Position numbers and translations under genes: made by a program
Notes under the pieces: generated by a model
Databases searched by the model: none
Told to the model about the DNA's origin: nothing
Seen by the model: the letters and a program-made list of their open reading frames with translations, nothing else
From: a virus
Virus record (IMG/VR): IMGVR_UViG_3300024352_000062
Coordinates: 1 to 35,383 of that record
DNA length: 35,383 nucleotides
Direction: 5' to 3' (one strand)
Part shown: positions 1 to 35,383 of the stretch, one piece after another
How positions within the stretch are numbered: position 1 is the first letter of the stretch
Layout: each line of letters starts with the position of its first letter

Positions 1-72
1 CTCAAATTCGTCTTGACGTTTTTCCGAAAGTTTAATAATTTTGCCTTCGGTTGGAAAATCGTTTTTTTTCAT
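1..72 (-). CDS. SF3 helicase, 5' end only (duplicate at contig end)
   Basis: These are the first 24 codons of the helicase gene, starting MKKNDFPTEGK, cut by the start of the window. The same bases recur at 35176-35247, where the gene continues to its stop at 33532. An upstream GAGAG lies 7 bases before the ATG and acts as ribosome binding site. This is not a second gene, only the redundant copy of its start. Confidence 0.85.
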   Translation of the reverse strand, partial: MKKNDFPTEGKIIKLSEKRQDEFE

Positions 73-100
73 TGATAATCTCTCTGTTAAAAATTTTTTT

Positions 101-130
101 TCAATTGATCGGAAAATCATTTTTTTTCAT
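101..130 (-). CDS. Mini-ORF MKKNDFPIN (decayed copy of helicase start)
   Basis: A nine-codon reading frame starts with ATG at 130 after an AAGG six bases upstream and stops with TGA at 101. Its first seven residues equal the helicase N-terminus. It is present only in the left copy of the terminal redundancy. It may be translated as a leader peptide, or may just be the debris of tandem duplication. Confidence 0.4.
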   Translation of the reverse strand: MKKNDFPIN

Positions 131-158
131 TGTTAACCTTTTTGTTAAAAATTTTTTT

Positions 159-188
159 TCAATTGATCGGAAAATCATTTTTTCTCAT
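159..188 (-). CDS. Mini-ORF MRKNDFPIN (decayed copy of helicase start)
   Basis: A nine-codon frame starts at ATG 188, preceded by AAGG six bases upstream, and overlaps the end of the GTG-initiated frame at 175-243. The same frame is at 35276-35305. It has the start and ribosome site of the helicase gene but ends after nine codons. Confidence 0.4.
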   Translation of the reverse strand: MRKNDFPIN

Positions 189-243
189 TGTTAACCTTTT
201 TGTTAAAAATTGTTTTTTCGGTCGGAAAATCGCCTTTTTTCAC
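175..243 (-). CDS. Short GTG-started leader ORF (22 aa)
   Basis: It starts with GTG at 243, seven bases after a strong AAGGAG, the best ribosome site in the leader. The peptide opens VKKGDFPTEK, which matches the helicase opening MKKNDFPTEG, then diverges and stops at 175. Its GTG overlaps the stop of the preceding 31-codon frame (GTGA). The same ORF is at 35292-35360. I see no domain. It is most likely a translated leader or an out-of-frame relic of the helicase start. Confidence 0.5.
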   Translation of the reverse strand: MKKGDFPTEKTIFNKKVNNEKK

Positions 244-335
244 GGGTATACTCCTTGAAAAATTGTAAATCCTGACGAATCAGCCAAATTCGTCAGGAGT
301 AATTCCCTACCCGAATCTTTGTTAGAATGCAACAT
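240..335 (-). CDS. Small leader protein (31 aa), unknown
   Basis: The frame starts MLHSNKDSGR at ATG 335 after an AGGAG ten bases upstream. Its TGA stop at 240-242 overlaps the GTG of the next leader ORF, so the two are probably translationally coupled. A perfect 10-bp inverted repeat (271-297) lies inside its coding sequence. No known family is recognised. The strong start signals and coupling support translation; a structural or regulatory role for the RNA is equally possible. Confidence 0.45.
   Translation of the reverse strand: MLHSNKDSGRELLLTNLADSSGFTIFQGVYP
271..297 (-). promoter_or_regulatory. Perfect 10-bp inverted repeat (hairpin or operator)
   Basis: CCTGACGAAT and ATTCGTCAGG are separated by seven bases. 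On the minus strand the hairpin sits 28 bases upstream of the GTG leader ORF and is not followed by a run of T, so it does not look like a terminator. It could be an operator or an RNA structure that controls helicase translation. Confidence 0.55.
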
Positions 336-29582: not shown

Positions 29583-31004
29583 TCAAGAATTCCTGAATTT
29601 GCCAAACTGTTTAGCCTTGCCAAAAGTTTGGGAGCCCATCATTTCCTCGGCACCCTCTTTTTGATCGATATTTTTCCCTGGCATTATAAAAAAATGTTCA
29701 GCACCTTGCAAATATTTATTTTTATAAGGGTTTTCTCGAAGCTGAACCCTGTTTGCATAACTCAATGCCGCAAGAGCGTCACAATGCCCAATACCCTCTG
29801 GACCCTCAAACCTTTCGAAGTCCGTTCGGTTTTTGTTAAAAACTCCGCCTCGGATCGATTTGATTAAAAATTTGCATCGAGGATGTATCTCAATTTGATC
29901 TAGTTCGAATAAATTTGACATACTTTGCACACCTGCCAGCCAGTCGCTTTTTGGCGGCAAATTCCAATCTGAACCGATCATATCGTGAATATCGACTAAC
30001 GTTTGACCCGGAACGTCTGCAGTTTTCGCGTGCCATTCTACATCCCATTCTTCCAGGGATTTTAAAATTTGATAAGTGGGTGTATTGCGAAAAAAAACTT
30101 TTTCATCCCAAATGAGTAACTTATTTTGAGCGTAATTATACGTATGCCACAGTGCTACGGTTAAATCTCTCACGCCACCCCAATCGATCGTCAAATGATG
30201 ATAGGCATCGCGTGGGAGGAAAAATTCCTTTACGTGGCGGTTAGGGTCAAAGCTTGGAATCACCACTTTACTCATCACACGAATGATTTTTGCTAGATAT
30301 TCACGCTTCCAAGCATCAGTATGCTCACCTCCGCAACGTCTTTTAGCCTCGTCAATTTGCGCTGGAGTAATCGAAGGACTGTCGTATACGGTATATTGGA
30401 AAAGCGTCCCTAATTCTTCTGCTTCGCTTAAAATGCGTGTATGGAGTGGGTGGTCAGGTTCCTCCGAGGGCGAGCTCACAAATATCTCGCACCCCTTTGA
30501 CCTTAATAATTGAGGACCCAAAACAGAATCAACACCATAACTAAAATCGTCTCCTTTAACAAAACCGCATTCCTCGTAAATAATAAGGGAAGCATTCCCA
30601 CCACGATTCCCGTCAACATAAGCCCTCTCTAGAGCTCCGAGACGTAGGCTAGAACCATTCCAGAGGTTGTATCTGTATTCTGATTTTACGGGCCATATAA
30701 TACCCTCTGGAGCGTCTGCGATGATCGATTGCAAATTGTCGTTAACTAGATCGTGACATTGCGTGTATGTCGGAGCTATCACCCTCGCAATCTTATTAGG
30801 GTTTCGCAACAAATACATAAGAGCATGCACACACGCCCAATATGTTTTCCCAATCTGTCTAGAGCTCAAAATACATATTTTGCGTGCGTGCGTCATATTC
30901 ACAGTTCGTGAAATGCTGCGCTGTAATCCGTCGAGTTTATAAGAGAGCTCGCCTCTCATCCAAAGCGATTTTTTAATATCGCCGTAACTTATTTTATTTT
31001 CCAT
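29583..31004 (-). CDS. Terminase large subunit
   Basis: The protein (473 aa) is the packaging ATPase and nuclease. Walker A is SSRQIGKT (47-54), Walker B LIIYEECG (140-147) with E144/E145. The nuclease domain has D274 in TIDWGG, and a second acidic site D409 in G-H-C-D-A-L-A-A-L-S-Y-A. Its start overlaps the upstream gene by 11 bases and has a weak ribosome site, so translation is likely coupled. It drives DNA into the procapsid through the portal. Confidence 0.93.
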   Translation of the reverse strand: MENKISYGDIKKSLWMRGELSYKLDGLQRSISRTVNMTHARKICILSSRQIGKTYWACVHALMYLLRNPNKIARVIAPTYTQCHDLVNDNLQSIIADAPEGIIWPVKSEYRYNLWNGSSLRLGALERAYVDGNRGGNASLIIYEECGFVKGDDFSYGVDSVLGPQLLRSKGCEIFVSSPSEEPDHPLHTRILSEAEELGTLFQYTVYDSPSITPAQIDEAKRRCGGEHTDAWKREYLAKIIRVMSKVVIPSFDPNRHVKEFFLPRDAYHHLTIDWGGVRDLTVALWHTYNYAQNKLLIWDEKVFFRNTPTYQILKSLEEWDVEWHAKTADVPGQTLVDIHDMIGSDWNLPPKSDWLAGVQSMSNLFELDQIEIHPRCKFLIKSIRGGVFNKNRTDFERFEGPEGIGHCDALAALSYANRVQLRENPYKNKYLQGAEHFFIMPGKNIDQKEGAEEMMGSQTFGKAKQFGKFRNS

Positions 31005-32425: not shown

Positions 32426-32782
32426 CTAGGCGTTAGTGCTTCGGCTGATTTCGAGCCACTTGGTGCCAGACCACAATAGCGTTAGGGTGTCATACTGATC
32501 CGGAGCCCATGTAGCACTCAACACACAGTTACCACTAGATAAAAGTTGTGCCTTTGTTGACGATCCGCTCTCAAAACTCAGGTATAGAATCTGCCCGACG
32601 ATCCAGCCATTTTGGAATGAAAACGTGCGGTTAGCCGCAGTTGTATTGTCGCTTGTGAGCCTAAGATAAGCGGTTTTATTATTTAGTATTACAATTTGGT
32701 CGTCAGCAATTAAAACCGCATCTTGTACAATATTTCCAAGGGGTTCTCCTTGTACCAGGTAGCCATCTCTAAAATTACCCAT
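32426..32782 (-). CDS. Small beta-rich protein like a fibre module (118 aa)
   Basis: The C-terminal half (GQILYLSFESGSSTKAQLLS, then D-T-L-T-L-L-W-S-G-T-K-W-L-E-I-S-R-S) matches the pattern of a beta module common in tail fibres. A related segment is in the 980-aa fibre (near residues 87-142). It may be a separate receptor-binding or capsid surface piece. Function inferred from pattern only. Confidence 0.58.
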   Translation of the reverse strand: MGNFRDGYLVQGEPLGNIVQDAVLIADDQIVILNNKTAYLRLTSDNTTAANRTFSFQNGWIVGQILYLSFESGSSTKAQLLSSGNCVLSATWAPDQYDTLTLLWSGTKWLEISRSTNA

Positions 32783-33027: not shown

Positions 33028-33093
33028 ACAAACTCCGAATGAGGCTCACGATTGAGGTGGTAAAAACACTTGTTATATACCAGAGTTGGAAGA

Positions 33094-33122
33094 ATATAAT
33101 CATCTTTTGATTTGAATTTCAA
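33094..33122 (-). promoter_or_regulatory. Candidate late promoter
   Basis: On the minus strand TTGAAA (33117-33122), 17 bases, TTATAT (33094-33099), with TG one base before the -10 (extended -10). The start would be near 33087, about 60 bases before the first late gene (33027). It lies between two iterons. Confidence 0.5.
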
Positions 33123-33291
33123 GCTATTTCTCGTTTATTTTTGAAGTGTATGAGGCTCACTCTTTTATTTATTAATTCGATTACTTATCCTGGTTGTGAG
33201 CCGCTGAGCCTCAAGCTTGTTTAGTGAATGAGGCTCACTGTTTTTACTGTATTTTCCGTATCTTATTTCTTATTTTTCTCCTTTGAGATAT

Positions 33292-33356
33292 GTAATACGT
33301 AATTTATATATATCGCGAGAGGAATATATATAATTATATATATAGTACTTATATAG
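33292..33356. other. AT-rich unwinding candidate
   Basis: A stretch of mostly A and T with TATATA repeats and only a few G or C (CGCGAGAGG in the middle), flanked by iterons on both sides. It is the likely site of strand opening (inference). Confidence 0.55.
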
Positions 33357-33367
33357 GAGGTAGGGGG

Positions 33368-33475
33368 ATGAGGCTCAGCGGCTCAGCGGCTCACAGCGAC
33401 GATATCTACCTGTTATCATTTCAAAAACAAGTGAGCCGCATATTTTTTAGGCAGCGGCTCACCGACCCTTTTTGA
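33368..33475 (+). CDS. Possible small ORF inside the origin (35 aa)
   Basis: A plus-strand frame starts MRLSGSAAHSDDIYLL after AGGAGG with a seven-base spacing, the strongest ribosome site in this stretch. It runs through iterons and ends at TGA 33473-33475. A weak promoter-like pair lies upstream in the AT-rich region (TTGAGA near 33283). The frame is short and partly made of repeat sequence, so it may be chance. Confidence 0.3.
   Translation: MRLSGSAAHSDDIYLLSFQKQVSRIFFRQRLTDPF
33431..33462 (-). terminator. Inverted iterons forming a hairpin downstream of the helicase gene
   Basis: GTGAGCCGC (33431-33439) and GCGGCTCAC (33454-33462) make a perfect 9-bp GC-rich stem with a 14-base loop. 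On the minus strand it is followed by TTGTTTTTG, so it could end the helicase transcript as well as be a binding site for an initiator. Confidence 0.45.
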
Positions 33476-33535
33476 GGCTCACATGAGGCTCACATGAGGC
33501 TCACATGAGGCTCACGCTTGCAACATGAGGCTCAC
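33473..33535. repeat. Tandem iteron block
   Basis: Four directly abutting units (33473-33482, 33483-33493, 33494-33504, 33505-33515) of ATGAGGCTCAC, then another after a nine-base spacer (33525-33535). The last copy overlaps the stop of the helicase gene (33532-33534), so the block was likely fixed along with the 3' end of that gene. Confidence 0.9.
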
Positions 33536-35247
33536 CTTTGCGCAGGGGTATACTTTGTCTCGAAAACAAATCCTTCGTGCGTCTGCCGATTTTGTCTGGG
33601 ATTTATAAAAACAAGATTGACCTTGTTTTTCTCGTTGTAGCGGAAATAGACACCCCTAATTTGAGCGCCTCCAAAACGTTTTCTTTCCGTATCGCTGAAG
33701 TAACAATCCCTTAAAAATGGTTGAATTTTTTTGGTATAACTTTGATATGTTAAATTGCTATTAAAGTATTCATTATAGAAATCAATTATCGTCGGTATTC
33801 CAATGAAAATATTTATATCATCAGTTTCGACATCATATTGTTTTCCTGTTCCAACCATTTTATATTGTTTTAATGAATCAGCGACATAATGAATAAAATC
33901 GTCATGCACACTTTCGTTCACTGAGTTTTTTTCGCGTTCGACTAACTTTTCTAATTTTTCCAATTCCTCAAATTGAATTTTGTTCAAAACAATATTCGGC
34001 TTGATAGTTGTATGCTCCCATTCCGGGAACCTGGTGAAAGCTTTGTAATTACTACTTTTACATACTTCACTTTGCGCATATTCCAAATGATAGTAAATAT
34101 CATTTAAAATCCCACTATGATTCTCATCAATCCACTTTTTAATTTCGGTATCAAATTGCTCAATCCGATTTTCTGTTTTGCGCTTCATTCGAATGATTAT
34201 AGCTTTGTCCGCCATGTCTACATCCAGATCAGGAACGTTGTAGGTTGCGCAAAAAGTAAATCTGTTGTCGATATTCACACTTTGCTGGTATAGCGGTCGA
34301 AAGCTTATAGTTTCGGAACAAATTAAGTCCCCCCAAATGTCGCTCGATATTTTTTTTGTGACGTTATCGAAAGAAAACAATCTCTGGTATCTGTGCGAAT
34401 AAATTTGGTCTTTGATCGTTTTGACGACATCAATCTTGTTAAGCCGCATCACACTGCCTTGGACGATTCTTTGAACTGCGTCCACAAAAGTACTTTTGCC
34501 TATGTTTTTTTGCTCTTGTTCACTGGCACCATTTTTACCTGCTATAATGAAAAATGGTTTTTTTAAATTTGAGCTTAAAGGGCTTAAAATAAAGGCTTTA
34601 GCGAGAAGTCTATCCTGGAAAGTTTCAAATTCAAAAAAATTAAGGAACTGTTCTATTAAATCGGTTTTTTCTGGTATTAGATGTTTATGTTTTTTTAATA
34701 GATATTCATCGTTATAGGGCGGATAACTTGGAAAACATCCGATGCTTTTATATTCTTTTAGATGCAATATAGGTAGATCGCGGAAAAATTGTTTTAACTT
34801 TTTAAAGCCATGCCCATAACTAAAAAAGTCTACTGTTATATCCTTTTTTTCGAAAAGAGCGCACAAATCCGTTTCGTCCTTCACGAAAAAGATATTTTTC
34901 CCATCACCATTCGGCGATATCTCCCAGAGCTCTCTATCGAGCGATATAAACGCGTCTTCCACGTAGGTAAGGTCAGGGCCCATCTCCCGATCTGGAAGCG
35001 TTAATTTGCCTACTAAGGACCATTGCAGAGCCATTTCTCGATCATCTAGCGGAAATCTTTTTTCCTCCTCAGTTTCTCGTTCGTTTGCTTTCCCCTTGTT
35101 CGTGATTTTTAGGCATGATTCGATTTTGTAATTAACAAGAAATCTTTTTGGACCAACATTATTCGTGTTGGTTTTCTCAAATTCGTCTTGACGTTTTTCC
35201 GAAAGTTTAATAATTTTGCCTTCGGTTGGAAAATCGTTTTTTTTCAT
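33532..35247 (-). CDS. SF3-type replicative helicase (DUF5906-like)
   Basis: The 571-aa protein starts at ATG 35247 (MKKNDFPTEGKIIKL) with GAGAG seven bases upstream; an in-frame ATG 16 codons upstream lies in repeat DNA and has no ribosome site. Residues 1-220 are an N-terminal domain of unknown fold. The helicase core has a split Walker A (I-I-A-G-K-N-G, then N-I-G-K-S-T with G250-K251-S252-T253), Walker B R-L-F-S-F-D-N (D294) and sensor 1 C-A-T-Y-N (N337). This matches phage and plasmid helicases of the DUF5906 type, which act with an AEP primase at the origin. The gene ends inside the iteron array. It reaches the end of the window, where the same bases recur at 1-72. Confidence 0.85.
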   Translation of the reverse strand: MKKNDFPTEGKIIKLSEKRQDEFEKTNTNNVGPKRFLVNYKIESCLKITNKGKANERETEEEKRFPLDDREMALQWSLVGKLTLPDREMGPDLTYVEDAFISLDRELWEISPNGDGKNIFFVKDETDLCALFEKKDITVDFFSYGHGFKKLKQFFRDLPILHLKEYKSIGCFPSYPPYNDEYLLKKHKHLIPEKTDLIEQFLNFFEFETFQDRLLAKAFILSPLSSNLKKPFFIIAGKNGASEQEQKNIGKSTFVDAVQRIVQGSVMRLNKIDVVKTIKDQIYSHRYQRLFSFDNVTKKISSDIWGDLICSETISFRPLYQQSVNIDNRFTFCATYNVPDLDVDMADKAIIIRMKRKTENRIEQFDTEIKKWIDENHSGILNDIYYHLEYAQSEVCKSSNYKAFTRFPEWEHTTIKPNIVLNKIQFEELEKLEKLVEREKNSVNESVHDDFIHYVADSLKQYKMVGTGKQYDVETDDINIFIGIPTIIDFYNEYFNSNLTYQSYTKKIQPFLRDCYFSDTERKRFGGAQIRGVYFRYNEKNKVNLVFINPRQNRQTHEGFVFETKYTPAQR

Positions 35248-35275
35248 TGATAATCTCTCTGTTAAAAATTTTTTT

Positions 35276-35305
35276 TCAATTGATCGGAAAATCATTTTTT
35301 CTCAT
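35276..35305 (-). CDS. Mini-ORF MRKNDFPIN (right copy)
   Basis: Same nine-codon frame as at 159-188, with AAGG upstream. In this copy it lies directly ahead of the helicase start; the MKKNDFPIN frame found in the left copy is missing. Confidence 0.4.
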   Translation of the reverse strand: MRKNDFPIN

Positions 35306-35360
35306 TGTTAACCTTTTTGTTAAAAATTGTTTTTTCGGTCGGAAAATCGCCTTTTTTCAC
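35292..35360 (-). CDS. GTG-started leader ORF, 22 aa (right copy)
   Basis: Same frame as at 175-243, with the strong AAGGAG upstream at 35368-35373. It starts VKKGDFPTEK. It overlaps the following MRKNDFPIN frame by 14 bases. Confidence 0.5.
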   Translation of the reverse strand: MKKGDFPTEKTIFNKKVNNEKK

Positions 35361-35383
35361 GGGTATACTCCTTGAAAAATTGT

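What the first reader, a model, noticed from the sequence alone, without database searches (positions are those of the whole stretch)
73..243. Tandem false starts of the helicase gene
Three consecutive 55-58 bp units each carry an ATG or GTG start and codons for MKK/R-N/G-DFP, the real start of the helicase, then stop within a few codons. The two outer ones have ribosome sites (AAGGAG or AAGG). Ribosomes entering at the strong GTG site would meet stops and restarts before reaching the real ATG. Gain or loss of a unit adds or removes a start and moves the frame by one. This may be a copy-number dial on helicase translation, unlike ordinary leader peptides.
Basis: partly seen in the sequence, partly recalled or inferred. 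Interest (0 to 1): 0.75.

Follow-up and report, generated by a model that had tools for sequence, protein, structure and literature searches.

The report
Tandem copies of phage helicase start
An uncultured phage carries two or three out-of-frame tandem copies of the start region of its replication-helicase gene in front of the gene, the number of copies appears to differ between genomes in the same sample, and the count should change how ribosomes reach the helicase, though nobody has measured it.

Summary
The array is real and sits exactly at 73-243 (minus strand). It is a tandem duplication of the helicase's own translation-start region: a 55-bp GTG copy plus two 58-bp ATG copies, the latter closed in all three frames. 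A related phage (L020) uses the sequence of the GTG copy, CAAGGAGTA(T/A)ACCC-(G/T)TG-AAA, as the start of its helicase. The strong "false" GTG is therefore probably the original start, displaced by the duplication. The two ends of the record overlap (1-266 with 35176-35383) and differ by exactly one 58-bp unit. Graph simulation shows that for k of 55 or more only a mixture of two-unit and one-unit genomes breaks the assembly this way, so unit number is probably polymorphic. With one 58-bp unit, the GTG leader's stop overlaps (ATGA) a start in frame with the helicase, the best geometry for coupling. With two units the same restart dead-ends 28 nt before the helicase. Unit number is therefore predicted to act as a high/low step more than a smooth dial. 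Four distinct related helicase loci lack the array, so it is lineage-specific and possibly neutral. No effect on expression is shown.

The parts
189..243 (-). Unit 1 (55 bp): strong SD + GTG, probably the ancestral helicase start; opens a 22-codon leader ORF (VKKGDFPTEKTIFNKKVNNEKK*) that ends at 175 inside unit 2
   Evidence: homology to L020 helicase start
251..256 (-). Shine-Dalgarno AAGGAG of the GTG start
131..188 (-). Unit 2 (58 bp): AAGG SD (195-198) before it, ATG at 188, 9-codon ORF MRKNDFPIN*
73..130 (-). Unit 3 (58 bp): AAGG SD (137-140) before it, ATG at 130, 9-codon ORF MKKNDFPIN*
175..178 (-). ATGA: stop of the GTG leader ORF overlapping a start codon; in this two-unit version it opens a 25-codon dead-end ORF
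1..72 (-). Helicase start MKKNDFPTEGKIIKL... (cut by the window's left end), weak SD GAGAGA at 79-84
35306..35360 (-). Unit 1 in the second, one-unit version of the array at the right end of the record
35248..35305 (-). The single 58-bp unit of the second version: head of unit 2, tail of unit 3
35292..35295 (-). ATGA in the one-unit version: stop of the GTG leader overlapping an ATG in frame with the helicase (587-aa N-extended form, 33532-35295)
33532..35247 (-). Complete gene of a superfamily 3 (D5-type) replication helicase, 571 aa
270..298 (-). Inverted repeat TCCTGACGAAT/ATTCGTCAGGA just upstream of the GTG SD; possible operator or leader hairpin

Best explanation
The array is a tandem, out-of-frame duplication of the helicase gene's own translation-start region (end of the 5' leader, Shine-Dalgarno site, start codon and about nine codons), and its copy number is unstable. 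Shown by sequence: the anatomy, the difference of exactly one 58-bp unit between the two ends of the record, and the match of the GTG copy to the helicase start of L020. Inferred: unit number is polymorphic in the phage population. The strong original start (AAGGAG...GTG) now begins a 22-codon leader ORF, and the helicase is read from later, weaker starts. With one 58-bp unit the leader's TGA overlaps an ATG (ATGA) that is in frame with the helicase, so terminating ribosomes can restart directly into a helicase with 16 extra residues. With two units the same restart gives a 25-residue dead end that stops 28 nt before the helicase ATG, so the helicase depends on independent entry at its weak site or on poor long-distance restart. 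Changing unit number by slippage or recombination is therefore predicted to step helicase translation between high (one unit) and low (two or more). Whether selection maintains this is unknown. Rough confidence in the parts: duplication of the start region 0.9; original start = GTG copy 0.8; polymorphic in nature 0.75; unit number changes helicase translation 0.5; maintained as a regulatory device 0.15.
For: Array far beyond chance. Start regions of the units and the helicase align over leader, start and about nine codons. L020's helicase start is 23/29 identical to the GTG site in register, against 7-15/29 for 23 other window gene starts; the pattern CAAGGAGTAWACCCKTGAAA, built from these two sites, has one match among the viral contigs searched, in the L020 record. 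Record ends 1-266 and 35176-35383 differ by exactly 58 bp with 125 and 124 identical flanking bases. In silico, each version alone closes into a circle for de Bruijn k of 55 or more, and only the mixture branches; at k=125 the branches are 209 and 267 nt against 208 and 266 observed. The one-unit version is a single crossover product of units 2 and 3 within 41 identical bases. Frame map for zero to four units. In E. coli reinitiation fell 40-80% at +14 nt and nearly vanished at +38 nt (PMC10666635); NTGA overlaps are by far the commonest spacing of close gene pairs (PMC12548453).
Against: No expression data. The host is unknown, so its anti-SD and reinitiation behaviour are unknown. The ATGA restart lacks a well-placed SD (AAGG 14 nt away), and SD removal lowered reinitiation in 4 of 5 E. 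coli pairs (PMC6728339). PMC12548453 cites work with no loss of coupling up to +25 nt, which would flatten the predicted step. The helicase ATG may be used directly, making the decoys irrelevant. The four distinct related helicase loci lack the array. The two versions in one record could in principle reflect chimeric reads; raw reads were not available.
Confidence: 0.5

Rival explanations
1. A recent, selectively neutral or mildly harmful slippage duplication. The helicase is translated adequately from its own ATG and the upstream copies are passengers that come and go.
For: Units 2 and 3 differ at only 5 of 58 positions and one-step loss is visible. The array is absent from related phages. 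No sign of conserved RNA structure in the array (z 0.3 and 0.8). Synthetic tandem initiation sites (3 and 6 copies) in Bacillus megaterium gave no titre benefit (PMC10821235).
Against: The duplication moved the strong native start out of frame, so some effect on helicase translation is expected even if not selected. Start codons are intact in all copies, though this may only reflect youth.
Confidence: 0.4
2. The repeats are a DNA element: an origin, an unwinding region or operator sites for a replication protein.
For: A/T-rich tandem repeats next to a replication gene; GTTAAC and TCAATTGA palindromes in some units.
Against: The palindromes are not in every unit (GTTAAC ends only units 1 and 2; TCAATTGA is only in units 2 and 3). 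A separate iteron field lies downstream of the helicase here and in relatives. The repeat is accounted for as a copy of the gene's own start.
Confidence: 0.07
3. The extra unit, or the difference between the two ends, is an assembly or library artefact.
For: Repeats are error-prone in short-read assembly; polymerase slippage can make unit-number chimeras.
Against: Longest identical stretch between units is 41 nt, well below the k used for final contigs; for k of 55 or more a single version closes cleanly. Even if one end were an artefact the array itself remains, with at least one 58-bp unit.
Confidence: 0.15

Closest known systems
Mycobacterial interspersed repetitive units (MIRUs)
   Same: Short repeats at gene starts carrying a small ORF coupled to the downstream gene by a -4 nt overlap (PMC12548453); copy number varies as VNTRs (own knowledge).
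   Different: MIRUs are described as mobile and inserted at many genes. Here the unit is a copy of this gene's own start, found only here, and only the one-unit version keeps the overlap in frame.
Leader minicistrons, bicistronic designs and ATGA translational coupling
   Same: Short upstream ORF, stop overlapping a start, restart into the gene (PMC6728339, PMC10666635, PMC12548453).
   Different: Here the leader is a tandem copy of the gene's own start and the number of leaders changes, alternating productive and dead-end coupling.
Synthetic tandem translation initiation sites in Bacillus megaterium (PMC10821235)
   Same: Three or six copies of a complete initiation site placed in tandem.
   Different: Engineered, different host and gene, no benefit in titre; here natural, degenerate and variable.
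Short-junction tandem duplication activating Staphylococcus aureus sigH (PMC3486894)
   Same: Spontaneous tandem duplication changes which translation start drives a gene.
   Different: There the duplication is about 1.2 kb and makes a chimeric gene under another gene's start.

Membership tests
Translational coupling by termination-reinitiation | Upstream stop overlapping or close to the downstream start | tested here: met
   ATGA at 35292-35295, in frame with the helicase in the one-unit version; in the two-unit version the in-frame ATGA (117-120) is reached only after a dead end
Translational coupling by termination-reinitiation | Downstream translation depends on upstream translation | not testable with these tools
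   needs reporter constructs
Repeat-number (VNTR) variation of expression | Tandem repeat whose copy number varies | tested here: met
   two versions in one record differing by one unit; raw reads not seen, so natural variation is inferred
Repeat-number (VNTR) variation of expression | Expression changes with copy number | not testable with these tools
   predicted from the frame map only
MIRU | Dispersed mobile repeat inserted at several gene starts | tested here: not met
   TRF finds the 58-bp unit only at the two ends of the window, GTTAACAATGA occurs only in the array, and no viral contig holds the unit pattern

The most novel reading that the evidence does not exclude
A natural phage switch in which slippage among tandem copies of a gene's own start region changes the number of decoy starts, stepping replication-helicase translation between a directly coupled high state (one 58-bp unit) and a decoupled low state (two or more), giving mixed phage populations.
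Probability: 0.15. Interest if true: 0.75.

Novelty: new variant of a known kind. Interest (0 to 1): 0.5.

Why it matters
It is a concrete, cheap-to-test case of expression variation by counting decoy translation starts, with apparent natural variants already in one sample. It also shows how a gene can survive losing its reading frame to a duplication by restarting at the copied start codon. If the effect is real, tandem repeats that overlap start codons should be sought as regulatory variants in phages and bacteria, where gene finders and assemblers both tend to mishandle them.

Tried and rejected
Search for close helicase relatives in viral contigs, genome contigs and phages: none. Search for the unit in viral contigs: none. 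Primase relatives by pattern: none. Rfam on 1-660: only sub-threshold chance matches. RNA structure within the array as the functional element: rejected, z 0.3 and 0.8. Frame-shift fusion of the leader to the helicase by unit gain or loss: rejected, every 58-bp unit is closed in three frames. DNA iteron reading: palindromes not in all units and a separate iteron field lies elsewhere. Transcript or ribosome slippage on the A8 run of unit 3 (minus one base would put its ATG in frame with the helicase) was considered and is not testable here. Paper searches for natural tandem start-region arrays found only the synthetic B. megaterium case, sigH and MIRUs; the library lacks most subscription journals.

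Full report
OBSERVATION. On the minus strand, window 243 to 73 holds three head-to-tail units of 55, 58 and 58 bp followed by the helicase ATG at 72. Tandem Repeats Finder scores the array 283; 300 dinucleotide shuffles of the first 400 bases reach at most 83. Units: GTGAAAAAAGGCGATTTTCCGACC... (22-codon ORF), ATGAGAAAAAATGATTTTCCGATCAATTGA... and ATGAAAAAAAATGATTTTCCGATCAATTGA... (9-codon ORFs), then ATGAAAAAAAACGATTTTCCAACCGAAGGC..., the helicase. All three false starts have a Shine-Dalgarno match; the helicase start has the weakest (-3.6 kcal/mol, against -8.0 for the GTG and a median of -5.8 for 27 ORF starts in the window). Each 58-bp unit contains a stop in each of the three frames.

THE OTHER END OF THE WINDOW. 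The record's last 208 bases repeat its first 266 with exactly one 58-bp unit missing: the first 125 and last 124 bases are identical. The record is thus a circular or circularly permuted genome of about 35.1 kb, broken at the array, and the complete helicase gene (33532-35247) sits behind the shorter version. In silico, either version alone closes into a clean circle for de Bruijn k of 55 and above; only a mixture gives an unresolved bubble, whose branches at k=125 are 209 and 267 nt, next to the observed 208 and 266. The single unit of the shorter version has the head of unit 2 and the tail of unit 3, so one crossover within a 41-base identical stretch turns two units into one, while the reverse needs several changes. 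The simplest reading is that the sampled population carries both, the shorter derived by deletion. Read depth is not available, and chimeric reads cannot be excluded.

ORIGIN OF THE ARRAY. Searches by terminase and by a gene near the helicase found relatives in viral contigs, among them L020, L021 (with identical L022), L012 and L011, which hold helicase homologues of 20-28% identity. L020 and L021 share the order RuvC-like, primase, helicase, and in all four the helicase is followed by an iteron field and the NFRDGYLV gene. None has an array in front of the helicase. In L020 the helicase begins CAAGGAGTAAACCC-TTG-AAAGAAAAAGAT. The window's GTG unit begins CAAGGAGTATACCC-GTG-AAAAAAGGCGAT: 23 of 29 positions identical in register, against 7-15 for 23 other window gene starts. 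The pattern built from these two sites has one match among the viral contigs searched, in the L020 record. The strong false start is therefore probably the ancestral helicase start, and the following units, including the one that now opens the gene, are copies of it (start regions align over leader, start codon and about nine codons). The helicase identification rests on the P-loop, on fold matches to D5-type superfamily 3 helicases (MPXV E5, AsfvPrimPol, SaPI5, NrS-1, papillomavirus E1, low-confidence model with mean pLDDT 49, core only) and on the primase neighbour. No Pfam family passes its cut-off.

HOW IT MOST LIKELY WORKS. Because 58 is not a multiple of three and each 58-bp unit is closed, no ribosome can read from the GTG into the helicase without restarting. 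The frame map shows a qualitative difference between unit numbers. With one 58-bp unit, the GTG leader ends at a TGA that overlaps an ATG (ATGA), and that ATG is in frame with the helicase (587 aa, 16 extra residues). With two units, the restart yields a 25-residue peptide ending 28 nt before the helicase ATG. NTGA overlaps are the commonest spacing of close gene pairs; in E. coli a +14 nt gap lowered restart by 40-80% and +38 nt nearly abolished it (PMC10666635), though other work found no loss up to +25 nt (cited in PMC12548453). The prediction is a step down in helicase translation from one unit to two or more, on top of independent initiation at the weak proximal site. This is inference; nothing here measures translation, and the host is unknown.

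ALTERNATIVES. A neutral or transient duplication is nearly as likely as a functional switch: the array is absent from relatives, its units are nearly identical, and there is no sign of conserved RNA structure. A DNA-level role is less likely because the palindromes are not in every unit and a separate iteron field exists downstream of the helicase as in relatives. An assembly artefact would remove the polymorphism but not the array.

COMPARISON. The closest known cases are MIRUs, whose small ORFs couple to downstream genes by -4 nt overlaps (PMC12548453), ordinary leader minicistrons, engineered tandem initiation sites in B. megaterium that gave no benefit (PMC10821235), and the sigH tandem duplication in S. 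aureus (PMC3486894). It works like leader-ORF coupling with a changeable number of leaders; it is not a MIRU, since the unit is found nowhere else in the window or the viral contigs searched. Graded as a new variant of a known kind.

Noticed in passing
window 1-266 and 35176-35383: Imperfect terminal overlap differing by one 58-bp unit: the record is a complete circular or permuted phage genome of about 35.1 kb that an exact end-repeat test would miss.
   Followed up: yes
window 33040-33535: Eleven copies (0-1 mismatch) of TGAGGCTCAC, including a 4-fold 11-mer tandem at 33473-33515, between the helicase and the next gene (a twelfth, weaker match at 32655). Relatives have 9-11-mer tandem repeats of different sequence in the same place (L020 3469-3511, L021 4082-4108, L013 6309-6351, L014 7258-7306): a fast-evolving candidate replication origin.
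   Followed up: partly
window 270-298: Inverted repeat just upstream of the helicase SD (fold z -3.1 with its surroundings); by eye, relatives have inverted repeats of different sequence in the same position (L020 about 1773-1797, L021 about 2211-2256, L012 about 931-974). One arm can also pair with the SD (ACUCCU/AGGAGU), so an alternative-structure leader is possible.
   Followed up: partly
L014:2848-3107: 17 copies of a 15-mer (GCTAACTTGTCCGGT) in a related phage contig.
   Followed up: no
window 29583-31004: The best match of the terminase among named phages is a phage of Silvanigrella aquatica at 33% identity over 89%, a weak hint at the host group.
   Followed up: no
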